NCBI RefSeq assembly: GCF_000203795.2
Contig: NW_006281115.1
Coordinates: 209,632-273,631, forward strand
Length of the DNA: 64,000 nucleotides
DNA from: Batrachochytrium dendrobatidis JAM81
Taxonomy: Eukaryota > Chytridiomycota > Chytridiomycetes > Rhizophydiales
Direction: 5' to 3'
Of the stretch, positions 1 to 55,200 are shown one piece after another. Under the pieces are notes generated by a model. It saw only the letters and a program-made list of their open reading frames with translations. It was not told the DNA's origin and searched no databases. Every line of letters starts with the position of its first letter. The first letter of the stretch is position 1. The translations under genes were made by a program, and so were the position numbers.

Positions 1-324
1 GGCGGCTTTATCTTGCTCGAACTCTTTCTTGTATTTATGATATTTATCGCATATATCTTCCCTTTTACGTTTGGCATCATCCAGTCTACTTTTGGCACTA
101 TTGCCGTCGTTTGATGGTCCTGGTTCACTTGAATCACCGTTGTTCGATGGCCCCGGTCCACTTGAATCGCCGTGGTTTGATTCACGTCCGACAGCTTTTT
201 CCCAATCTTTACCAGGACTACGTTTTGACAACTGATGCGATCGAGTTTCTGCATTGGGCGTAGTTACTAACGCACTGGCAACTGCTGATACGGACAGTAC
301 AAGTATAATGTCTGTAAATTTCAT
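1..324 (-). CDS. Small secreted protein, 3' end beyond window (paralogue of the gene at 3283-3801)
   Basis: The reading frame opens at an ATG (complement of 322-324) and runs off the left edge; 108 residues are visible. The first ~18 residues are a hydrophobic signal peptide (MKFTDIILVLSVSAVASA). A Kex2-like LSKRSP site follows at about residue 33, then a Gly/Ser/Pro-rich linker in which a unit resembling GDSSGPGPSNN occurs about twice, then a charged, probably helical region rich in Lys, Asp and Glu. The leader is essentially identical to that of the gene at 3283-3801, but this copy has about 12 extra linker residues and a diverged helical part. The protein probably enters the secretory pathway and is trimmed at the dibasic site. 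Function is unknown. The family type is typical of lineage-specific chytrid secreted proteins (inference). Confidence 0.75.
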   Translation of the reverse strand, partial: MKFTDIILVLSVSAVASALVTTPNAETRSHQLSKRSPGKDWEKAVGRESNHGDSSGPGPSNNGDSSEPGPSNDGNSAKSRLDDAKRKREDICDKYHKYKKEFEQDKAA

Positions 325-669
325 ATGATCAAACGTAGGCTTAAACTATGCTGCTGGTAAAACAATGGATGACAAACTAGTATTTGGTTGGAATGCTTTG
401 ACGATAGAAATTACCCTGCAATTTAGTCATTTTATATGACAGGATACACAAAACTCCCTGATTATACTCAAATCACTCATATTTAATCCCTGATCACTAT
501 TGTCAATGCATTTAATGCTTGTAAGTGCTTAAATACTCCCTTAAACACGTTTGTCTCAAAAACAAAGGGTGTTTGTGTAGCATACAGCAACTTTTGGACA
601 GCACGAGCTATGGTATTCAAATGATATGCGGCTGTTGATGGCAAGTAGGTGTGCTATGTTGTGTTTAGC
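1..669. repeat. Segmental duplication, copy 1
   Basis: The 5' half of the secreted-protein gene plus about 345 bp of its upstream flank matches 3514-4148 in the same orientation, about 3.48 kb away. Flank and leader differ by few bases, whereas the C-terminal coding part is clearly diverged. Similarity stops abruptly near 669, after the shared GTGCTATGTTGT stretch. The left limit lies outside the window. Confidence 0.85.
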
Positions 670-2794
670 ACATATCAATAGCATCATGTCTTGCCATGCA
701 TTGGCTTGACATTTGTATTGGACAGTATCAACAATCAAAGTGACTGCAATCATAAACTACAACTGAACGGAGTTATTACGTGCCGGACAAGGGATAGTAT
801 AGGGATAAAATGCATTTTTGAGGTGGCTAATTTTAAACCCTTACTAAAACAATACTAAAAATAAACAATAGGGATGATAAGGACATTGTATACAGATACA
901 CTAATATGATTCCGTATCATAGCCTCAAATAAAGTGGAGTTTTGACATGACTCCAGTTTATCAATCCAGTCGCATGCAGTCAGTTTGAGTGATTTATTGT
1001 TTACTGTGTTGGAAACGTGATCACTGCAAGTGGTTGGACTGGTCAATGGCATCAACAGTATCAATCAAGTGATCATCATTAGTTATACTGTAACACAACT
1101 ACACTGTAAAAGTGGTTCAGATCACCAAGTTTAACTATACCTAATATCAATCGTCAATCGCTGAAACGTGTGTATACATGTATATACAATAGCGACCAAT
1201 CAATGACTGCAACGCAATCTCACCATAACTGCGATGGACGCAACCAATTTGTTGGTCAGTCACACCACACATTTACATTGTTATTTGCAACGACACCAGA
1301 TGGAATCATTGCATCATTGCAAGGACTGTCGAGTATATAAACAATGTTCAAATTGTATCACAATCATCACGATCATCAGTGATGTACTGGATATTTGATC
1401 AACTGTATCCAGACTACACGACTGATTATGAACTGATTATGGACTGATAGTATCGTGTTCTATAGTTGCAGTTGTAATTGCAGTTATAGTAACCAACATA
1501 TCAAACACTGATATGACCAAAATCAAACCACTGTTGAATTGGACCCAGTGTATTCAATCAACACCACAATCCATGTCATGGATCGTGTCGTTCAATACAC
1601 CAAACACAATGATCCATGTGATGACTGGTGCTGTCTATATAACCACGCTTGTATATATTGGTTTGATCACATTGGTTGTATGTGTCGAGTTGCACCGACA
1701 CACTGTAACACCATATGTGGTGAATGGTGGTATCAAATCTAGTTTACAACTGTCAAGTACAGCCAAACACGCTCCGACTGTATTAAACTGTTGATGTTGG
1801 ATGTGGTCTGATTGACACCGACATGTGAATCTGGCATGCTCGGGTTGTGATTGCGGAACTTTGTGATATATTGCACATGCATTGACTTGGATAGCAACAT
1901 GCATAAAGTTTGAGTGTCAATGGTGATAACGGATCGATACATGTGCAGGCTAGTACAGTACAGTACAGTACAATGCAGTATGTACAGTATATCACAATAT
2001 ACAAATAACCACAGTGATAAATGACCATAAACATGTTGGACATTTTGTAGCCATAGATCCAAACCAGTCGACCAGTGAAGCTATACAATGAAATCTAGAT
2101 ATATTTTGATGATTGCATCACGATTACATGTATACACCAGTTATTGTACAACAGTAAAACAATCAGTAAACATCACACAACATCCGACTATTCAGCATCC
2201 CATCTGTCATTGAACCTGCTGCGTCCACGATCTATGCGCACATGTGCAAGGTCAATCACATCATTTGTGTCTACATGTGGAAACCTTAGCTTCAAAACAC
2301 TAATACAGCAGCACAGTTATTGAAATACAAACAACCTGCTGTAACCATTTCCATCAACTTATGTTGGCGACCCTTTGTTTGATATGCATAATTCAATCTT
2401 GTAAAAACACGCTTTACGATTCATGACAGTTGGAATGAAAACATAACATGAAATAAACGAGAAACTGTCGGAATTATCAACCTTGGTGTTGTTGATTTGC
2501 AAATATCGATATATTGTTTGACTGTTGGTTGGAATGGCATGTTCAGCTATTGCTTGTGTATCATGTATCACGACGACAATCTGACTTGTTGACACGACCA
2601 GTTTGTCAACGATGCGCAACTCCAGTCGATACAATACATAACAACGACACACATCTGGTATATCGATGACTGTTTGTTGAGCGTGTTGAGTCTGGTGCTG
2701 GTGTTGATGTTGATGTTGATGCGAGAGTTTCAGCGTTTCACATATACAAGGTTTACTGTGTTTTTGATGCGTGTTTTTGGATTAAAAACTAAAC
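670..2794. other. Gene-poor AT-rich intergenic block
   Basis: I see no convincing gene. Short open frames on both strands (for example 1513-1794 plus, 1739-2062 minus) have no homology-like domain and overlap one another. The DNA is dense in TGATCA, CAATCA and ACAGT-like words. It holds a five-base microsatellite (GTACA x4) at 1953-1972 and a GTTGAT triplet at 2703-2720. Confidence 0.5.
1953..1972. repeat. Microsatellite (GTACA)4
   Basis: Four perfect copies of the pentamer GTACA, followed by an imperfect fifth. Confidence 0.9.
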
Positions 2795-2945
2795 ATTTAC
2801 ATGACATTGTTGATACTTGTTGAATTTGCAACTCTGGTTTGATACAAACTGAACATTATGATATTGGTAATATGCACGAAAACAATGGTCGCATTTGTAA
2901 AACATGCAATCATTATTATATCGAATTAGAATGCAAACGTGTGAG
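2795..2945 (+). repeat. Duplicated block B, copy 1, with cysteine-containing open frame
   Basis: This ~150 bp matches 4472-4622 at about 85-90%. It contains an open frame (2839-3051, 70 codons, no ATG at its start) whose central part has the pattern C-x2-C-x8-C around RICKTCNHYYIELECKR. In copy 2 the same frame is linked to an upstream ATG; here two extra bases just before the conserved stretch break that link. It is either a decayed small gene or non-coding repeat DNA. Function unknown. Confidence 0.45.
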
Positions 2946-3282
2946 TTTGACTGACACTATCCAAACAGTAGACTCGATATCTGGATTGCAATGTATGAAT
3001 CTGATGATCGCACAATGTATGATTCCACAAACCCAAAAATGCAAGGTGTAAACATATCAGTTCAAACCCATTGTATAACATTTACTGTTGGTGTATTGAC
3101 TGGTATCAGTGGAACTGATGTAGCAATTCCACAACTTCAATGATATTGACGAGACCAATATTTAAACATCGTTATAAAAATCAAGATTTTAACACGCATT
3201 AATCTATTATCACATGGCACACTATGAATTACTTGATTTGGTTCAATTTATTTTTGAATAGTTTATTCATCAAGTCAAGCCA

Positions 3283-3801
3283 TTAATGATTGGTAAGTAT
3301 TGATTTGAATTGTTCGAGTTTGCCTTTCCATCCAGTGCCAGATTGCTTCTCGAATTCTTTTCTTGCTTCCCTTTTCACTTGTTTCGCTTCCTTGCATCTT
3401 TCTTTCAACTGTACCAACTTCTTACGCCTGAGTTTAAGTAATTCGACACTGTCTCTACCATAATAATCACTATCAAACGCCTGAAAACTCAAGCCTTGAT
3501 TTTCTAGTTTTAAGTCGGCTATATCTTGCTTGAATTCACTTTTGTATTTATGATACTTATCGCATACTTTCTTCCTTTGACGAATGGCATCATCTAGTTC
3601 ATTTTCGGCAATATTGCTGTTCGATGGCCCTGGTCCACTTGAATCGCCGTGGTTTGATTCACGTCCGACAGCTTTTTCCCAATCTTTACCAGGACTACGT
3701 TTTGACAACTGATGCGATCGAGTTTCTGCATTGGGCGTAGTTACTAACGCACTGGCAACTGCTGATACGGACAGTACAAGTATAATGTCTGTAAATTTCA
3801 T
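3283..3801 (-). CDS. Small secreted protein, 172 aa
   Basis: This is a complete single-exon gene. The ATG (complement of 3799-3801) begins a signal peptide of ~18 residues (MKFTDIILVLSVSAVASA). A Kex2-like LSKRSP motif ends at about residue 37. A short Gly/Ser/Pro linker (residues ~50-62) follows, and the rest is highly charged and Lys-rich, predicted helical or coiled-coil, with a single cysteine (C79 in VCDKY). It shares its leader and upstream DNA almost perfectly with the truncated gene at 1-324; the helical body has diverged and lacks the extra linker repeat. Secretion is inferred from the leader. No enzymatic motif is visible and I do not recognise a function. Confidence 0.8.
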   Translation of the reverse strand: MKFTDIILVLSVSAVASALVTTPNAETRSHQLSKRSPGKDWEKAVGRESNHGDSSGPGPSNSNIAENELDDAIRQRKKVCDKYHKYKSEFKQDIADLKLENQGLSFQAFDSDYYGRDSVELLKLRRKKLVQLKERCKEAKQVKREARKEFEKQSGTGWKGKLEQFKSILTNH

Positions 3802-4148
3802 ATGATCAAACGTAGGCTTAAACTATGCTGCTGGTAAAACAATGGATGGCAAACTAGTATTTGGTTGAATATGCTTTGACGATAGAAATTACCCTGCGAT
3901 TTAGTCATTTTATATGACAGGATACACAAAACTCCCTGATTATACTCAAACCACTCATATTTGACTCCAGATCACCATTATCAATGCATTTGATGCTTGA
4001 AAATGCTTAAATACTCCCTTAAACACGTTTGTCTCAAAAACAAAGGGTGTTTGTGTAGCATACAGCAACTTTTGGACAGCACAAGTTATGGTATTCAAAT
4101 GATATGCGGCTGTTGATGGCAAGTAGGTGTGCTATGTTGTATTTAGCA
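3514..4148. repeat. Segmental duplication, copy 2
   Basis: Direct-orientation partner of 1-669. The spacing between the two start codons is 3477 bp. The best conservation covers the promoter region and signal-peptide codons, ending near 4148 just after GCTATGTTGT. Confidence 0.85.
3906..3918 (-). promoter_or_regulatory. Possible TATA element of the 3283-3801 secreted gene
   Basis: On the minus strand a CATATAAAATG sequence lies about 110 nt upstream of the start codon. It is conserved in the duplicated copy (about 430-440). Position and sequence fit a TATA box; there is no direct proof. Confidence 0.35.
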
Positions 4149-4471
4149 ATATTTTTAGATAAATAATAGTGTATGTCCTTGTATATGACCTGGAGTGTTG
4201 AGATGTGGAGTCTGTTGATTTGCACTGTATATGTGTGTGGAACCTTTGTATGTATTTGAACTGTGATCACCAGTTGTGATATCACAGCCACCTCTTATGC
4301 AAAAAATATAGAAATCAGGGATCCTCAACAATGATGTTTGAAAAAGGATTCATATACCTTCCTCCCTTCCTTCTGGTATTGTTCACCGCTCTCCTACTTT
4401 ATAAATACGCGCTTCCCGTTTTTAATAAATAGCGCAATCTACTTATTGGTTCATTCCCTCATACCTTGCAA

Positions 4472-4622
4472 ATTCACATGACATTGTTGATACTTGTTGA
4501 ATTTGCAACTATTGTGATACAAACTGAATATTATGATATTGGTAGTATGCATAAAAACAATGGCCGAGTTTGTGAAACATGCGATCATTACTGTGTCGAA
4601 TTAGAATGCAAACGCGAGGGTT
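4472..4622 (+). repeat. Duplicated block B, copy 2, with small ATG-initiated open frame
   Basis: Partner of 2795-2945. The open frame here starts at an ATG near 4478 (MTLLILVEFATIV, hydrophobic) and continues into the cysteine-containing stretch VCETCDHYCVELECKR, ending at 4654. Differences from copy 1 are a mixture of silent and replacement changes, so coding constraint is not demonstrated. It could be a tiny secreted cysteine-containing peptide or a gene relic. Confidence 0.4.
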
Positions 4623-4654
4623 TTTGGAATACAACGAATGGGTTTACAACATAA

Positions 4655-5286
4655 ATATAATTCCAACTGTACATTATTTGATCATATTTCCAAAACCCAT
4701 GCCATTGTTTATTGCGTTGGGTCAGATAAATCACTATCGACCCTATGAATATTTGGATGCATTTTTGATCTATTTGTAATTTTAGTTGAACAATGGTATA
4801 AACATTTGATTGTATCAAGATAATACACCAAAAATTTGATGCGTTGGGGTCCAATATATATCATAATCAAACATTCAGAAAGGGTCGTGAATTGAAACCA
4901 AGGTGGGTTCCCAGTTATATGACTATATTTTGGAAACCATAGTTTGATAGGGTTCTATATCAGGTATCACAATGGCTTGATTTTTGTTGGTTCAAATTGA
5001 AGAATGGTTAATTCGATATCAAATTCTGATTGGTCTAAATTTATCGGATGCAATCGGTTATGCTGAAACTATTGGTATTCAATGCTATCAAACCCTGAAT
5101 TAATAGCAAGGAGGTTTTTAATACACATTTGATTATCATTGTTGCAATCAAATGTGCACCTCACTGATATTTGCGTTTATTTATAAATATTGATTGCTTA
5201 TCCCTTGAACGTTGAGCGATTTTACCGATTATAATATCTATTCAGTGCTTTATACTACTCCTTATTTCCGCTATTTAAAAACTCAA
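4655..5286. other. Intergenic region upstream of the NRPS-like gene
   Basis: No gene recognised. The open frame of the next gene extends upstream of its first ATG, without another ATG, to 5212. The true promoter and any 5' non-coding exon probably lie here. Confidence 0.5.
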
Positions 5287-8200
5287 ATGCATTACTATTT
5301 CCATACATTTCAAAAATATCATGACTATAATACCACAAATCTCTTTTTTACCGACTCCAACAATTGCATTCGTCCTAATCGCTTAGAAACTTTGTTATTT
5401 TCCACACATTTCAAATACCCACACATGCCTCAATTTTTATGTGCTTCGCCTATCTTGTCACTGGAAGAATTGAATGATGCAGACACACTGACACTAGTGG
5501 ATATACCGCTTGAAACCATCAGGTCCGAGTTACAATCTACTCAATTCAACCCAATCTCTCGGTCATTATCTCATCTCACTGATTCAACAGACCGCGACTC
5601 GGAGTGTAACTCCGCACTCGATCCTTTTGTAGCTGAAAGTACCAAACATTGCCACATTCAAAACCCGTATCAGCTCGCTATTTATCCAAATCTTTTAGAA
5701 GCTTCGGGCTTTCCTGTTGCAAACCCAAAAGACAAGTTGCCTCTACGTTTTCCAAACATTGATTGCAGCACCAAGGTATGAAAACAATTAAACCCGTTTT
5801 AAACTATATATTGTGTATAAAACGAGTTGACTTGACACGACCCAACTTTGATGTATAGACTCGGGCAGATTTATCCATTAATGATACTGCTTTTAAAGAT
5901 GCATCTAATGCAAGTCTTTTAGTTTTGAACAAAACTAGAGAGATTAGCTTGGTTGAGCGACAAAACTCCACTTCTGGTGACACCTGTTTTGATCATGATC
6001 AGCATGCCAATGTCGAGTTTGAACCATCAAAGTCCGATACTGGTAAGATACTGTCGTTTATATAAATGTATTGTATTTTTGTACAACATAATTGACAAGT
6101 TTAAATTTAATCAAGGCTCGCTGTATAAATCTGGAAATAATCATGGCATATTAGCATTGCATCGTATGGAAAGTGGTGTCGATTTGAGCGCAGACAATGA
6201 TCTTGATTTATTGCCATGTACCGATATAAAGCAGCCTTGTGGTTTGACAAATGAGCCCTGTTCTGCCATACTACTCAAGTAAATATCTTTTCAATATTTA
6301 CTAAACTATATTCAGTATTATAATTGGACATCTAACCTTGTACTCCAACTCCAATTTCAGATCATCTACAGTTGATGAAATACAATCACTATGGAGTGAT
6401 ACTTTGAAACTTGAACAGCCTATCGATGCATACCCAGCTACCCCTATGCAGCACGCAATGATCATTCCCACAATGCAAGATTCAGCCGCATACCTGTATC
6501 AATTTGTTTTTCTTGCCAACTACCAACTAGATACGGACATGCTTGAAAAGGCGTTTTGTGCTGTGATTAGGTCTCTGCCACTTTTCCATTCATCGTTTGT
6601 TACAACTACATCTGACGGAATCTGCCAAGTGGCAAGATCGTCTCAAGACAGTGTCGATTTCTCACTAGTTTCTGACAAGATTGAACTCTATATTGAAGCA
6701 GACAAGACGCGAGGATTTTCATTGACCAAACGACACTGGGTGCGAATGACTGTTGTAAATGATGGTGATCGCCAGTATATGGTTTTAACGATTCATCATG
6801 CATTGTTTGATGGTTGGTCTGTGCCTCTTTTTACCTTGGACATGCTTACTGCGTATGCAGGATATCCCATTGAACAACGGCCTTGCTTTCAGAGTGTAGC
6901 AGAGTATCTGCAGAATCACGATTCACGACCACATCGCAAGTTTTGGAGTAGCTACTTGAAAGATGCTTCCCCGTCACAACCACTCTCTTTGGGATGGGTT
7001 CATACTAATGATTCAAATGCCAATGAGATCAACTACAAATCAAGTTTTGGTATGTTGGCTGTCAAAGACTTTGCAAAACATATTGATGTAACAGCAGTGG
7101 TGATTCTCAAAGCAGCATGGGCTGCAACTCTACGCAAGTTCCATCGGTCAAACGACGTCGTGTTTGGACAAGTTTCAAATGGTCGAAAAATCCCAGTCGA
7201 TGGAGTGGACAGGCAAGCAGAGCTGAGATGCTTCAATAGTGATTGACCTTTTTCTTACCCTTTGCTGTATGTTTAGAATCATTGGACCGCTCGTTAATAC
7301 AGTGCCATTTCGAGTTGTATTTGATGATGGCTCGACTGTAATGAATCTACTTGAATCCGTTGGCAAGTGTCATGTTAAAGTACGGCCTCATTCTCATTCG
7401 TCACTGTCGGACATTTGCAAATGGGCTGGAATGAAGGGTTCGGCCAGGCTGTTTAACACACTGTTCTCATATCAAAACCTTCCACCTGATACTAGTTTTT
7501 CCAAAATATTCGAAAGGCGACACGATTTGGAACATCAGCCTTTACATGATAATATGGATCTTGAGTTGAAAATATATCCTAGCAAGGACTCGCTGCTGTT
7601 TGTTCTAAATTCGGGTTTACACATATCCTCCGTGCAGTCGCAATCTATTCTGGCCGAGTTTGATTTTACTATTGGGCAAATTCTTCAGTCATTCAATGAT
7701 CCAAATATAAAGACTGATTCATTATGGCAAATGTCAAGCGAGCAAACATGTCAGATCTCCAAATTATCCTTTGGCTCAACTGTCGATCTTCCGTATAAAC
7801 TCATCCATCATGGTTTTGAATCCCAAGCTGCTAAGCATTCTGATTGGACAGCCATCGAGTTTGAATCACAAAGTCTTACCTATGGTCAACTCGATCACTG
7901 TGGAAATGTTCTTGCTGCTCAGCTTATATCCCAAGGAATTACAATTGGAACTCGAGTTGCGGTTTTGATGCACAGATGTCTTGAGTTTACCGTTTCTATG
8001 CTTGCTATTCTCAAGGCAGGAGCCACTATCGTTGCGATTGATTCCAAACTTCCCATCAAACGTATTTTATTTACCCTTAAAGATGCCAATGTCAATACTG
8101 TACTTTCCACTTGTTCACAGGATATCCATATTGCAAATGGTGTTCAGACTATAACCATTGATTTACCATCGTTGTTGTCTGCCAAAACTCCTTTACGATC

Positions 8201-10342
8201 CACACTTTCTGTGCCGACCGTGTCAACTTCATCTCCCTATATCATTATTTACACATCAGGATCAACTGGCACGCCAAAAGGTGTTGCTATATCTCATTGT
8301 GGTGTCATCAATATTGTTGCTTTACAAGCCAGTCGCTTTGGTGCGCTTCCCAAATTCCGCGTCGCGCAGTTTATGGCGATTGGATTCGATGGCTGCCAAT
8401 GGGAAACCTGGTCTGCTTTAAACAATGGCTCTACACTAGTACTAAGAAAAAATGATGTATTTAGCACTGTATCTGATTTGGATTCACTGTTCATCACTCC
8501 TACCGGTCTGGCTCAATTGGGCAGTCCACAAGACTATCCTCGATTAAAGCATGTCAATATTGGCGGTGAAGCTTGTTCTCAAACACTCAAGGACAAGTGG
8601 GCTCCTTTTGTAAAGCTATGCAATGCATATGGTCCAACAGAAGTATCCATCATGTCACATGGGTATCAGCTTTCTATTGATGAACAGATATCGCTAGGAC
8701 CTGTAATTCAAAATACCAGCTGCTATATTTTGGATTCATGTCAACGATCTGTTCCCATTGGCGTTGTTGGCGAGATCTATGTGGGTGGCATCGGTGTGTC
8801 ATCTGGTTATATCAATTTATCTGAAATGACCGAAACCCGATTTATTCCAGATCCATTCACTCCATTTTCTGGTGATCGTATGTTCAAAACCGGTGATTTG
8901 GGTAGATTGCACACCAATGGAAACTTTGAATTTATCGGCCGAGTAGACGATCAAGTAAAACTCAAGGGATATCGAATTGAGATTGAAGAGATTGTAGCAG
9001 CAATCATGACGCATCCTTGTATTGTATCTGCAGCTGTTGTTGTCAAGGACGAGTCTCATTTGGTTGGATTTGTTACTCCATCCAACGTAAATGTCAATGA
9101 GCTACGCGAAATGATATCCACTATTCTTCCTGCCTATATGATTCCAGCAGTATTTGTGGGCTTAGTCACAATACCTACATGTGCTAATGGTAAGACTGAC
9201 AAAAAAGCGCTTAAAGCCATGAACATCAAGGCAACTGACGGTGAGCTTCAAACTGACACTGAACATAAACTGGCTAGTATTTGGTCCAAACTACTTGATG
9301 TAGACATCTCAACCATTGATCGCACTACTGCATTTTCTGCCATTGGTGGGGACTCCATATCTGTAATTTCTCTCCACAGTTGTGTAAAATCCAGTTTCAA
9401 TCTCCCAAATCTGTCACTCAAGTCGATTGTGTCCAACCCAGTTCTTTTCGCTCTGGCTACTTGTATCGATTGTCTTGTTCATCCTACTGCACCTTTACCT
9501 ATTTTAAATACTCGATCATGTCCAGCAATAGAGTCTACACCTATTCGTATTGTATGCTTTCACGGTCGCGGATCCAATGCTATTCATATGCAATTCCAAC
9601 TTTCCACCATCAAAGCCATTCTTGGCAACAATGTCGAGTTTATTTTTATTCAAGGACAACACAAAACCAACGCAGCTGGTAAGCTGTATATGTTGATATA
9701 AATTGTACTGGTTTGTATATTTATTAACGGTTATTTTTTGCAATGTATTTTATAGTGAAATGGGGAAATGATCCACTGGAATGGTTCAAATGGTTCACTT
9801 TTATTCAACCGAGTATATCTGAAAAAAAATCGCTGGCCGAATATATTTCCAAACAACTCGAGCAAATTGGACCGGTTGATGCTCTTATAGGGTTTTCAGA
9901 AGGAGCTCTTGTAGTCGAAATGTTGGATCGACTTTCAATCAAGGGAAAAATCAAACGTTCTTGGAATTTTAGTATTCTATGTTCCGGCCAACCACTCTTG
10001 TCTATGCTTTGCTCTTTTCCATTCAAGTTGGCTCATGACGATCTGGCACTTCCGTGTATTTATACTCATGGAAGTAACGAGAATAGTGTTGGTATTAGTG
10101 CCAAGTATTGTCGTGACATGAAAACAACGATAAAGCATTTCTCAAAGCATGACATTCCAAGAGATCATCAGTATGCAGGAAGGGTTGCTAATGCTATTCA
10201 GGAAATGGCTAGCAACTATTCTTTGATCAATGACCAGCAATACCCCATTATTAGACTAGAAAACAAAAAGTCGATGGTTTGTAGAATCAGACATGGAATA
10301 AGATCCATCTCTAATCACTGTAACCGAATCAGATATAAATAG
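5287..10342 (+). CDS. Single-module NRPS-like enzyme: condensation-adenylation-carrier-FSH1/thioesterase
   Basis: Proposed exons are 5287-5775, 5859-6042, 6116-6278, 6361-7212, 7277-9678 and 9756-10342 (1558 aa). Residues 1-279 are unrecognised. A condensation-type domain begins near residue 290 (PATPMQ) and carries HHALFDG at 424-430 (HHxxxDG catalytic motif). The adenylation domain shows YTSGSTGTPKG (~888), NAYGPTE, FKTGDLG, GRVDDQVKLKGYRIE and NGKTDKKAL. The carrier protein has GGDS with the phosphopantetheine serine at ~1256. The C-terminal alpha/beta hydrolase resembles fungal FSH1 serine hydrolases, with nucleophile GFSEGA (Ser ~1411) and a late HDIPRDHQYAG histidine. Such an enzyme would activate an amino acid, load it on the carrier, condense it with an acyl or amino partner and release it. 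The product is unknown. Intron 4 must use a GC donor (7213). The start codon is the first ATG in an open frame and is uncertain. Confidence 0.85.
7213..7276 (+). other. GC-AG intron inside the condensation domain
   Basis: The frame reaches a stop at 7244-7246. Removing 7213-7276 (donor AG/GCAAGC, acceptor TTTAG) joins GVDR to IIGPLVNTVPFRV, restoring the conserved late condensation-domain motif. No GT donor nearby gives an in-frame join. Confidence 0.8.
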
Positions 10343-10801: not shown

Positions 10802-12798
10802 ATGTCTGCTATTTTATCCATCCAGAGTATCAAGTCTGTTTTTGGGTTAAACAATTTTACTGCATTCATTACATACCATTCACGATACTTGACATATCCC
10901 AAATCCAGACTATTGTCATGCAATGCTGCTAATCAATTAGATTCAATAGATGTACCAAGTCATGTAGACTTGCAGGATGAATCCATAACCAATGTAAAAA
11001 ATATCAAAAAGCAGTCATCATTCCCTGAAAATTGGTTTTATTCTCATCAAACCGACCATCTGCAGGCGTCCAGATCTTCGCTTGCATCCGATGTCGTTGA
11101 ATCGTTTAAAGAGATACCCGCACCCACCAACACTTTGACAACTCCAAAATCCTGTAATTCCGGCAATTCAAGCTATAAAACTAACAAGTCTATTTTAACG
11201 CTACCAGTGATTACTAGAGAACTAACGCCAGCTGAAATAGCTTTGCTTGAAGCGTTTGATCAGATGGTTTCAACAAGGACTCGTCTTTATTCAAAACAGG
11301 CAGATGATCTGTTGGATGCTGTACTGCCTCCAGTTCCTACCAAATGGTCACAAAAGGCTGGTTGGACTTGTTACAATCCAGATGGCACGATGGTTCCTGT
11401 CGAGGTAAAATATAAAAATAATGGTTGAATTTGAATCATTGTATATGCCAGAATCTAAGCTTATTTGTAATGTAGCATCCACCGACTGGAGAGCCATTAG
11501 TATTTGATGTTGAAGTCATGTATCGGATCACAGACTTGCCAGCAATGGCCATTGCAGCATCACCCACGACGTGGTATTCGTGGTGCTCCAATGTACTGCA
11601 ATCATGTTCAAGTCAAGATACCTTTGATCAGCGAATTAGTTTAGGAGATCCAAGTATTCCACGACTTGTTGTGGGTCATAATATCATGTACGATCGAGCA
11701 CGTATTTCTGAAGAATATTTGCAACATCCCACTATGCTGGCATATCTATGCACCATGGGATTGAATTCATCCTTGTACCGATCCAATATTCGCGACACAA
11801 TTGCTTGGTCCAAGATGATTCAAGGACTGACAGATAAAAAGTATGATTCAGCTCCAGTTCCACAAGGATATTGGGAGTATTCTACCAATACAGGAAAGCG
11901 ATTTGTAACAGCATCCTCTTGCAACAGTCTCAAGCATTTGGTCGAACTACACTTGTCCAAAAATATGAACAAGACTCTGCGAGATCTGTTTGAGCAAACT
12001 AAAATTGAATTGGTTCGCGACTCGAGCCAGTTTCAATCTGCTATACAGTATTGTGCACAGGATGTACTGCTTACACATGAACTATACAAGAAACTCTTTG
12101 CTCAATTCAAACAAGAGTATGCCGATCCGCACTCGGTGGCTATGCAATTTAGATTGACGTATGATGCAGAGATTCAAACCCTATGCCGACAATTCAAAAG
12201 CATGCAGAGTGAATTGGAAAGTCAAATGGAACAAAAACTTGAAGCCATATTGGAGCATATTTTGCTCAAATACAATACTATGGAGAATAGATTCAACACG
12301 AGTATAAGTCAGTTGGATTGGACATTGAAATCACACAAACAGCTCGGTATCAAGCCAGCATGGTATCGTAGTTTCTGGGATTCAAGCAAGAAAAGTATGC
12401 ATTTGTCCATCAGAAAAGCAGCCACAGCACACATTCTTGAACTGCAATGGGATGGACATCCAATGCTGTATTCAAAGGAGCACGGATGGGTGTATCGGAT
12501 CCAAAGCGATGGCAATTCGAATACGACAAAGGTCAAGACAGGAAAGAAACTCAAAGCCAATACAAGAGTACAAGTGCCGGATGATCGATCGATTGTGTCT
12601 GGACAAGAGTATGCGTATTTTCGAGTTCCTCATCCAAATGGCACGAATGCACAATGTGGAACACCTTTAAGCCGAGGTTATTACCATGCGATCAACCATG
12701 ACAGATTGACATCATCGAGTGAGATGGGACAACATTACTTGGATTTATATGCACGATGTTTGTATTGGGAACGACTTGGTAACATGTCCAATGAATAA
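10802..12798 (+). CDS. MIP1: Mitochondrial DNA polymerase gamma, exonuclease half only (no polymerase domain)
   Basis: Exons are 10802-11404 and 11476-12798 (641 aa). The N-terminus is basic and Ser-rich, like a mitochondrial presequence. All three proofreading motifs of family A gamma polymerases are present: Exo I FDVEV (D212, E214), Exo II GHNIMYD (N270, D274) and Exo III YCAQD (D397). The following spacer is recognisable, with YAYFRVPHPNG and NAQCGTPLSRGYY. The protein stops at about the point (LYWERLGNMSNE) where the polymerase domain should begin; none of polymerase motifs A, B or C follows, and the next gene starts 62 nt later. Known Mip1/POLG proteins are about 1000-1250 aa. The gene may be truncated, or the polymerase half may be a separate gene elsewhere. 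Confidence 0.85.
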
Positions 12799-52299: not shown

Positions 52300-55200
52300 A
52301 TGGATCCAGAACCATCACAGCACAAGTCTGTGACTATCGAGTCTGCATCCACTCCTTATACGGATTCATCCACTCCGCCTTCTGCCAACTCGTTTAGATT
52401 TCCTTTATTGTCCCCACACCGACTGTCTTCGTCATCGCATGTACCAGAATCACCAGCACATCCGACTACATCCGCAACATCATCCAGCTCGGTGTTTTCT
52501 ACGACGTCAGGGTTTCAACGAAAGCGTAGTTCATTGGTACCAGCGAGGTCTCATTATACTAGTCGATCAAATCAGGATTTAATACCAAGTGAGTTTGCAT
52601 AATGACCAACAGATGTTTTAGAAACCAACTTGTACAAGAGCAAATGGAGTCCATTGTCAATGAGTTGAACAAGAGTTAACCTTTGGGTTGGTATTGACGG
52701 ATAACTAGATTCGGCTATACAGGGTAGCATTTCTAGTTCAGTACACGATGTGGGAGTATCGCTTACCAGCAAGGAGATTCGTCAAGTATGATGTTGATCA
52801 ATGCAGCCCTATATAGTTGTAATAGATGAATGCTGTGGAATATAGATGCACACACTAGATAACTTTGCATCCCTTAGGATTTATGCTTAGTTTCTAATAT
52901 TGTTGGGTACTGAGCTGCTTTGGTCATTGGCTAACTTTTACCATTGCATTTCATAGCAAACTCACTCCTGGACAAAGAGAGAGTTGGATATGACGCTAGG
53001 GAGAGACTATTCCTACGACACAGTTTCAGAACACTCACTATTGGTTGGTGTGGGAAGTGAGATGGATGTAGATCATACCCCAGTATCAATGCATTCAGAC
53101 AAACCCACTGCAGGCAATTCATATTCTGACTCGATTGTATTGGAGAAGTCAAGCCGATCTCCAAGTGTCAGTGTGTCACTGTTGAGCCAGCAAGTCATTA
53201 CTCATCATAATAAGATTCTTGCTGATAGTGGGAAAAGTCTATTGCGTTCTCAGACTCCTACTCGTCTGATGATTCCTCCATTACATGTGACTTTGATTCC
53301 AGATTCTTCTGCAGTTGGTTGCAGTGAGAATGCATGCAGCAATGACGAGTCCAATGACGAGTCCAATGAAACCTCATTCTTACTGCCAACTCATCGTCAA
53401 TCTGCTTCTCTCCAGTGTCCTGACTGCACTCATTCTCAATATGGTACATCTGCATCACAACGCTGCACATCCCATGAACATTCTCATGAACATCGCTTTT
53501 ACCCCTCGTATTGGCTTCACCTACGTTCCCAATGCACACTCAAGACTGTAGGATCTGTTGCACAAACTGGTATTAAAGCTATTCCTGCCGTCTGCTTGGC
53601 TGTCATGCTAAATTTATTGGATGCCATGTCCTACGGAATCATCGTTTTCCCTGCTTCTAGCACTTATGTTCCTGATTCGGCTGTTCAGAGCGGCATCTCC
53701 ATGTTTTTTGCAAGGTAAGTCTGTCTGCATTGTATCGTGTCAAATCTTCAACCCGTCTAATTCAACAATCGTAGCACAATTATTTCTCAGCTGATCTTCA
53801 CTTGTGGTGGCTCGGCATTCAAGGGTGCTGTGGGCAGCATGATGATTGAAGTCATGCCTTTTTTGCATATCATGTGTGAAACAATTGTCAAGGAAATGTC
53901 TGGATCGTCTACACACGATATTACAGCAACCATTATGACCTCATATGCCATGAGCACACTTCTCACTGGTATCGTTTTCCTCATTCTTGGTATATTCAAG
54001 CTAGGCAGTCTGATCCAATTCTTTCCTCGTCATATCCTTATTGGGTGTATTGGAGGTATTGGTCTTTTTCTTATTTTCACTGGGATAGAAGTCACTTCAG
54101 ATATCAAGCAAGAATTCACGCTTTCTTATCTATATCGTATATTTGAATTATCTGCATTCAAGTTATGGGGAACTAGTCTAGCTATTGCATTGCTATTGAA
54201 AACCATTCAGCAACATGTAAATTATAATCTCTTGATTCCTATATTCTACACGTGTGTTCCAATCGTGTTTTATACGATAACGTTTGCAATGGGATTATCC
54301 ATCGAAACTTTACGTGCCGAACATTGGCTATTCGATTTACCAAACTCGTCTGAAATGCCCTACTGGACTTATTTTACCTATTTTGACTTTGGTGTTGTGA
54401 ATTGGCGCGCTGTTGCTTGTAAGTCTATTTCTTGTGATTTTTGATAGATTGTGCACTGACATGGGTTTTCTATAGTAACTATACCGACACAACTTGCATT
54501 GATTTTCTTTGGTATTCTGCATGTGCCAATTAATGGTATTTATTATTTTTTGTAATGTATCGCTTGTATCATATGAATCTGTCATCCCACCTCGACACTA
54601 AACCAAAATTCATACAACTAGTGCCTGCACTGGCTATATCCACTAAGCAAGATGTGGACTTGTCATGGGAAATTATTGGTCATGGGTTGACAAACATTGG
54701 CGCTGGATTGCTAGGTGCACCACAAAATTATCTAGTCTACTCCAACTCGTTGCTGTATATTCGATCTGGAGGTGGATCTCGTATTGGTGGATTTATGCTG
54801 TTTTTTGCCACTGCATGGCTGTGGATAAAAGGCAGCATGGTGTTTTCTCTCGTTCCTTGCATCTTGGTTGGATCGTAAGTGTCTTTGTAAACATTTGCAC
54901 AAGGATAAGAGTTGAATTTACAAGTCATGTATGCTAATTACCAAGCTTGATTTTAGACTGGTTTTTCATCTGGGCATCGATTTGCTACTTGAAAGTGTAG
55001 TTCATACGTGGTTTATTGGGATCAATCGACTTGAATATGCAACTATTTTGCTCATTATCGGTGTCATGGGTGGTATTGGGTTTACTGAGGGTATTGTTGT
55101 TGGAATTATTTTTGCGTGCGTCTTTTTCGGTAGGTTTATATTTGATTTTCCTGTTCATCCGAGTCTTTACCCAACACGTTTGAACTGACATATTTGCAAT

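What the first reader, a model, noticed from the sequence alone, without database searches (positions are those of the whole stretch)
5287..10342. Stand-alone single-module NRPS ending in an FSH1-type hydrolase
The order condensation-adenylation-carrier-alpha/beta hydrolase is readable from motifs. The release domain resembles fungal FSH1 serine hydrolases rather than a classic NRPS thioesterase, and ~280 unrecognised residues precede the condensation domain. No tailoring, transport or regulator genes flank it (neighbours are polymerase gamma and secreted proteins), so it may make a small aminoacyl or dipeptide product alone. By manual alignment to GrsA the adenylation pocket appears to keep the Asp that binds the substrate amine (FDGCQW) and reads roughly D-G-W-F-N-G-A-I-M-K; the alignment is from memory.
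Basis: partly seen in the sequence, partly recalled or inferred. Interest (0 to 1): 0.75.

Follow-up and report, generated by a model that had tools for sequence, protein, structure and literature searches.

The report
Chytrid peptide synthetase ending in hydrolase
A frog-killing chytrid fungus carries a one-module enzyme for building small peptides that ends in an unusual release domain; the gene appears to have been noted before with the wrong parts, because neighbouring genes had been fused into it.

Summary
Window 5287-10342 (+) reads as one six-exon gene (1558 aa) with the order C-A-T-FSH1. The organism is Batrachochytrium dendrobatidis (Bd). It is not alpha-aminoadipate reductase, which lies on C1.

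The locus is not new. Bushley and Turgeon 2010 listed two Bd NRPSs: BDEG_03514 (T-C-T-A-T-FSH1), matching the C12 paralogue, and BDEG_08447, "A-T + RNase H fold + LITAF". The only LITAF match in this genome lies just downstream of our gene, behind an exonuclease gene on the same strand. So BDEG_08447 is almost certainly this locus with two neighbours fused in and its C and FSH1 domains missed.

Six FSH1-ended NRPSs were found, in three species of Rhizophydiales. Five have a carrier before C; this gene has none detectable, so a dipeptide made alone is not supported. Pocket code DGWFNGAIMK is reproduced. The gene is a mosaic: its A core groups with the Bd paralogue, while its FSH1 rejects that grouping. 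Product, transcription and donor are unknown.

The parts
5287..6424 (+). N-terminal extension, about 300 aa in exons 1-3 and the start of exon 4; no known domain, no carrier motif; from about residue 255 it aligns with the carrier-to-C linker of the C12 paralogue
6425..7604 (+). Condensation domain (HHALFDG motif kept), split by the intron at 7213-7276
7213..7276 (+). GC-AG intron, phase 2, same place and phase as in the C12 paralogue; deposited gene model P0001 begins downstream of it
7815..9194 (+). Adenylation domain with C-terminal subdomain; pocket code DGWFNGAIMK
9267..9404 (+). Carrier (thiolation) domain, GGDS serine kept
9537..10177 (+). FSH1-type serine hydrolase domain (GFSEGA nucleophile; HDIPRD histidine; acid column Glu), split by the intron at 9679-9755
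10802..12798 (+). Separate downstream gene: mitochondrial-polymerase-type exonuclease (RNase H fold) without a polymerase domain; inferred to be fused into published model BDEG_08447
12860..13519 (+). Separate downstream gene: LITAF-like zinc domain protein, the only LITAF match in the genome; inferred to be fused into published model BDEG_08447

Best explanation
The gene encodes a terminal NRPS module of Batrachochytrium dendrobatidis with the order C-A-T-FSH1. It belongs to a set of Rhizophydiales NRPSs in which an FSH1-type alpha/beta hydrolase, fused in cis, stands where the classic thioesterase would be. Inferred working: A activates one probably hydrophobic amino acid and loads it on the single carrier; C joins it to a donor held on a carrier of another protein, most likely the C12 paralogue, because this gene has no detectable carrier of its own before C; FSH1 then attacks the thioester through its serine and releases the product by hydrolysis, much as LovG does in trans for a polyketide. 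Shown here: gene structure, domain order, kept catalytic motifs, family, mosaic history. Inferred: substrate class, donor in trans, release chemistry.
Against: No transcript, product or enzyme data. Exon 1 is weakly supported. The absence of an upstream carrier could also mean the C domain is idle, or that a 5' exon was missed. A carrier split by introns could escape, and fungal fatty-acid-synthase carriers were not sought. Interaction with the paralogue rests on elimination only. The substrate reading of the code relies on recalled tables.
Confidence: 0.55

Rival explanations
1. The C domain is vestigial and the enzyme acts as A-T-FSH1, releasing or transferring a single amino acid.
For: No carrier detectable before C; one A domain; the first module of the paralogue is itself degenerate (AMP-binding match only at E 0.02).
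Against: The C active-site motif HHALFDG is kept and C is 36-44% identical to the five FSH1-bearing relatives over its whole length, unlike a decaying domain.
Confidence: 0.2
2. Like AneB and ThmA, single-module fungal NRPSs, the C domain joins the carrier-bound amino acid to a small alcohol or amine from solution.
For: A known fungal precedent for single-module NRPSs (PMC10720950; abstract and section headings seen).
Against: That paper's headings name a T-C construct of AneB, so its C appears to follow the carrier, whereas here C precedes A and the terminal position is taken by a hydrolase.
Confidence: 0.1
3. It is the synthetase for cyclo(Phe-Pro), reported from Bd cultures.
For: PMC9730576 (passages seen) reports the cyclic dipeptide and Bd proteins similar to tyrocidine synthetases; structural matches here include GrsA and TycA.
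Against: A single A domain is not expected to select two amino acids; its code differs from that of GrsA at 5 of 10 positions (GrsA code recalled); the passages seen of that paper rest on BLAST and name no Bd gene.
Confidence: 0.05
4. The published architecture is real: an NRPS fused to RNase H and LITAF domains.
For: Bushley and Turgeon 2010 report it for BDEG_08447 (section read).
Against: Stop codon at 10340-10342, 459 bases to the next gene's ATG at 10802, then genes of other families in the same order and strand; deposited P0001 ends with FSH1 and the same C-terminal residues.
Confidence: 0.03
5. The gene is decaying: the N-terminus is the remnant of a lost A-T first module and the enzyme is inactive.
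For: Missing upstream carrier, unrecognisable N-terminus.
Against: The spliced frame is open over 1558 codons; core motifs kept; only 6 of 974 residues differ in the deposited Bd protein P0001.
Confidence: 0.1

Closest known systems
Bd NRPS BDEG_03514.1 (Bushley and Turgeon 2010, PMC2823734); by architecture the C12 paralogue, protein P0011
   Same: C-A-T-FSH1 core, 45% identity over 1279 columns, shared intron places and phases
   Different: P0011 has a carrier and a degenerate A-like piece before C; its FSH1 history differs from this gene
BDEG_08447.1 (same paper)
   Same: Almost certainly this very locus: A-T followed by RNase H fold and LITAF, the latter with a single match in the genome
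   Different: Published model lacks C and FSH1 and includes two neighbouring genes; its sequence was not seen here
Polyrhizophydium stewartii NRPSs P0006, P0012, P0016
   Same: C-A-T-FSH1, 44-46% identity; an A domain of another P. stewartii protein, P0005, shares 9 of 10 code positions
   Different: All three have a carrier before C; their pocket codes differ from this one
LovG and Bref-TH (stand-alone thioesterases; PMC4147253 and PMC10512364, passages seen)
   Same: Release a chain from a fungal megasynthase; PMC10512364 says LovG shares the alpha/beta-hydrolase domain structure of an FSH1-domain protein
   Different: Act in trans on polyketide synthases; here the domain is fused to an NRPS
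Yeast FSH1 (PDB 1ycd)
   Different: 16% identity; free-standing protein

Membership tests
NRPS elongation/termination module | C domain with HHxxxDG | tested here: met
   2e-44; HHALFDG
NRPS elongation/termination module | Amino-acid adenylation domain with core motifs and binding Asp/Lys | tested here: met
   TIGR01733 334 bits on P0001, cut-off 317.4
NRPS elongation/termination module | Carrier with GGxS serine | tested here: met
NRPS elongation/termination module | Donor carrier upstream of C in the same protein | tested here: not met
   no GGxS in residues 1-300; carrier profile gives 0.1 bits, from residues 279-296 only; 2 of 200 shuffles score higher
FSH1 serine hydrolase family (PF03959) | Family profile and fold | tested here: met
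   67.4 bits, cut-off 21; 1ycd
FSH1 serine hydrolase family (PF03959) | Ser-acid-His catalytic residues | tested here: met
   GFSEGA Ser, HDIPRD His; the acid column is Glu in 5 of 6 NRPS domains and Asp in 1; assignment by alignment and by eye only
LovG-type release thioesterase | Release of a carrier-bound product | not testable with these tools
   needs an enzyme assay
Alpha-aminoadipate reductase (LYS2) | C-terminal reductase domain; best family match | tested here: not met
   no reductase family; an A, carrier and NAD_binding_4 gene of that kind is on C1; TIGR03443 on P0001 158 bits, cut-off 1030
ChNPS12/ETP module 2 subfamily | A domain inside that clade | not tested
   published placement of BDEG_08447; no row of my tree was taken as a ChNPS12 or ETP reference
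Cyclo(Phe-Pro) synthetase | Activation of both Phe and Pro | tested here: inconclusive
   one A domain only; specificity not assayed

The most novel reading that the evidence does not exclude
The two Bd synthetases form one split assembly line: the C12 protein supplies an aminoacyl donor on its orphan first carrier, this protein accepts it through its C domain and releases the product through a cis-fused FSH1 domain, and their A cores have been exchanged between the two genes since the split from B. salamandrivorans, so that the partners keep matched or re-tuned specificity.
Probability: 0.12. Interest if true: 0.65.

Novelty: new member of a known kind. Interest (0 to 1): 0.4.

Why it matters
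It corrects what looks like a published gene-model error that had been used to speculate about zinc- and nucleic-acid-binding NRPSs in relation to gliotoxin-like toxins. It shows that Bd has two NRPSs with FSH1 release domains, of a kind shared with B. salamandrivorans and Polyrhizophydium. Besides the C1 reductase, they are the only genes in this genome where condensation and carrier matches came together (a condensation-like frame on C5 has no carrier match), so a non-ribosomal peptide of this fungus would most likely come from them.

Tried and rejected
Decayed first module: I suspected by eye that residues about 165-260 were a dead carrier. A profile of 11 carrier domains gave only 0.1 bits on the N-terminus, and that from residues 279-296, not from the suspected stretch; 2 of 200 shuffles scored higher (1.8 and 0.5 bits), so by rank it stands above most shuffles, but the score is negligible. 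tblastn found no A-domain remnant in window 1-6500 (best E 2.1). Only the linker homology from residue 255 stands.

FSH1-NRPSs elsewhere: a search with the FSH1 region alone returned only P0001 among 289 candidates, although the broader search lists six proteins with FSH1 among its 120 best, so it says nothing about rarity. No PDB sequence match for FSH1 at E 0.1; the fold comparison did list 1ycd.

B. salamandrivorans orthologue: besides P0015 none of 857 aa or more was listed (120 best of 5400), nor a shorter N-terminal piece; a fragment or unannotated gene is not excluded.

Whole-model structure is poor (mean pLDDT 52.3, 15 sequences); only the FSH1 region is used (residues 731-930: 18 of 20 ten-residue blocks at 63 or more, two at 53 and 37). 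The Foldseek list is dominated by NRPS modules.

C-domain placement of this gene in the large tree is unresolved (support 0.214, 0.588). One A domain of the same gene (P0001) was dropped before the A tree (233 to 232), and domains covering under 80% of the model were dropped before that (number not recorded). Rows labelled 'bact' in that tree are all rows without a eukaryote name in the listing; many come from unnamed sources and were not checked.

Full report
OBSERVATION. Window 5287-10342 (+) contains six exons that join into one 1558-residue frame; four introns are GT-AG and the fourth of the five (7213-7276) is GC-AG. Pfam gives Condensation, AMP-binding, AMP-binding_C, PP-binding and FSH1 in that order along the protein, all above curated cut-offs. 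Residues 1-299 match no Pfam family with the limit at E 10. The intron inside C is phase 2 and the intron inside FSH1 is phase 1 in both this gene and the C12 paralogue, at aligned places, which supports the splicing. The N-terminal exons are less sure: a frame as long as that of exon 1 arose in 1 of 2000 simulated stretches, but its codon bias is within the shuffle range; exon 3 alone is not the best of its six frames; exons 2+3 joined come close to the maximum of 1000 shuffles.

ORGANISM AND PRIOR WORK. P0001, Batrachochytrium dendrobatidis MT418_007283, differs at 6 of 974 residues but begins in mid-C. Bushley and Turgeon 2010 (PMC2823734; passages, one section in full) counted three NRPS-type genes in Bd: one reductase and two others, BDEG_03514.1 (T-C-T-A-T-FSH1) and BDEG_08447.1 (A-T followed by an RNase H fold and LITAF). 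A search for these two gene names found only that paper in the library. In this genome, downstream of our stop on the same strand come a mitochondrial-polymerase exonuclease domain (an RNase H fold, from established knowledge) and a LITAF-like protein. The LITAF match is the only one in the genome and the exonuclease family has two loci. Therefore BDEG_08447 is, almost certainly, this locus with two neighbours fused in. I did not see the BDEG_08447 sequence itself.

RELATIVES. A second gene on C12 has C, A, carrier and FSH1 plus a carrier before C. Six of the 120 best-listed proteins carry FSH1: P0001 and P0011 (Bd), P0015 (B. salamandrivorans), and P0006, P0012 and P0016 (3 of 13 listed for Polyrhizophydium, some of them partial). 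Counting this gene for P0001, six distinct FSH1-NRPSs come from three species, all of the order Rhizophydiales. Five of the six have GGxS before C; this gene does not. In an A-domain tree of 232 domains (31 of them from named eukaryotes) this gene pairs with P0011 (0.985), then B. salamandrivorans (0.941), within a clade of chytrid and Aphanomyces domains (0.998). All rows came from best matches to this query, so the tree says little about other fungi.

MOSAIC HISTORY. On six FSH1-NRPSs, three fixed topologies compared, the tests disagree between domains. For the A core, this gene pairs with the Bd paralogue and the pairing of paralogue with B. salamandrivorans is rejected (AU 0.0046). For FSH1, the paralogue pairs with B. 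salamandrivorans and its pairing with this gene is rejected (AU 0.0024). C favours the FSH1 pattern without rejecting the other (AU 0.097). The C-terminal part of A is uninformative. The simplest reading is an old duplication before the split of the two species, followed by exchange of an A core, in Bd or in the compared lineage.

HOW IT MAY WORK. One A domain, one carrier and a hydrolase suffice for loading and release. The C domain needs a donor. The genome shows five PP-binding matches at E 0.001: this gene, the C1 reductase, two in the paralogue and one on C10 in a 56-residue frame, perhaps the mitochondrial carrier (inference). Carriers broken by introns or of other families would be missed. 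The paralogue is thus the likeliest donor, by elimination. None of this has been tested biochemically.

SURROUNDINGS. All 25 other frames of 200 aa or more in the window were scanned (3, 9, 10, 3; list), plus 7 smaller or upstream frames (2 in the window, 5 of the 8 listed). Matches: exonuclease, LITAF, two protein kinase frames, PPR, RNase H1 N-terminal domain, several Kelch-repeat frames, a sulfate permease frame (53761-54444), a cyclic-nucleotide-binding frame, an aspartyl protease frame; the rest gave nothing or a weak match below cut-off. No tailoring enzyme of a known kind lies near the gene. Upstream is a repeat-rich stretch with small secreted-type proteins.

VERDICT. New here: the corrected gene, the fusion error, the missing donor carrier, the species spread, and the conflicting histories of its domains.

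Noticed in passing
window 10802-12798 (+): Exonuclease-only relative of the mitochondrial DNA polymerase, without a polymerase match nearby; exonuclease and polymerase matches lie together on C11, 33% identical over the main exon, so an old paralogue.
   Followed up: partly
window 1-4614 and L021 1-9898: Segmental repeats, 81-96% identical, carrying small secreted-type protein frames with a shared N-terminus that looks like a signal peptide (window 3283-3822; L021 2036-2638), just upstream of the NRPS.
   Followed up: partly
proteins P0002, P0008, P0009, P0017, P0018, P0076, P0114: NRPS domains of the oomycete Aphanomyces group with chytrid ones (A tree 0.998), at 36-40% identity to this gene against 26-33% for the remaining rows named as bacteria or unnamed; possible transfer, direction unresolved. 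PMC2248709 (passages) reports A. euteiches NRPS transcripts unrelated to those of Phytophthora.
   Followed up: partly
L013 4358-7921 (C5): 1187-residue frame with a condensation match and what looks by eye like an embedded SAM-type and coiled-coil segment; no A or carrier match reported there.
   Followed up: no
L012 6744-4517 (C12): The paralogue's N-terminus is a truncated A-like piece (AMP-binding E 0.02) followed by an intact carrier that has no A domain of its own.
   Followed up: partly
P0003, P0004, P0005, P0007, P0020, P0038 and others: Polyrhizophydium stewartii has 13 NRPS entries and 4 more, some partial, with varied pocket codes and one with a reductase-type ending.
   Followed up: no
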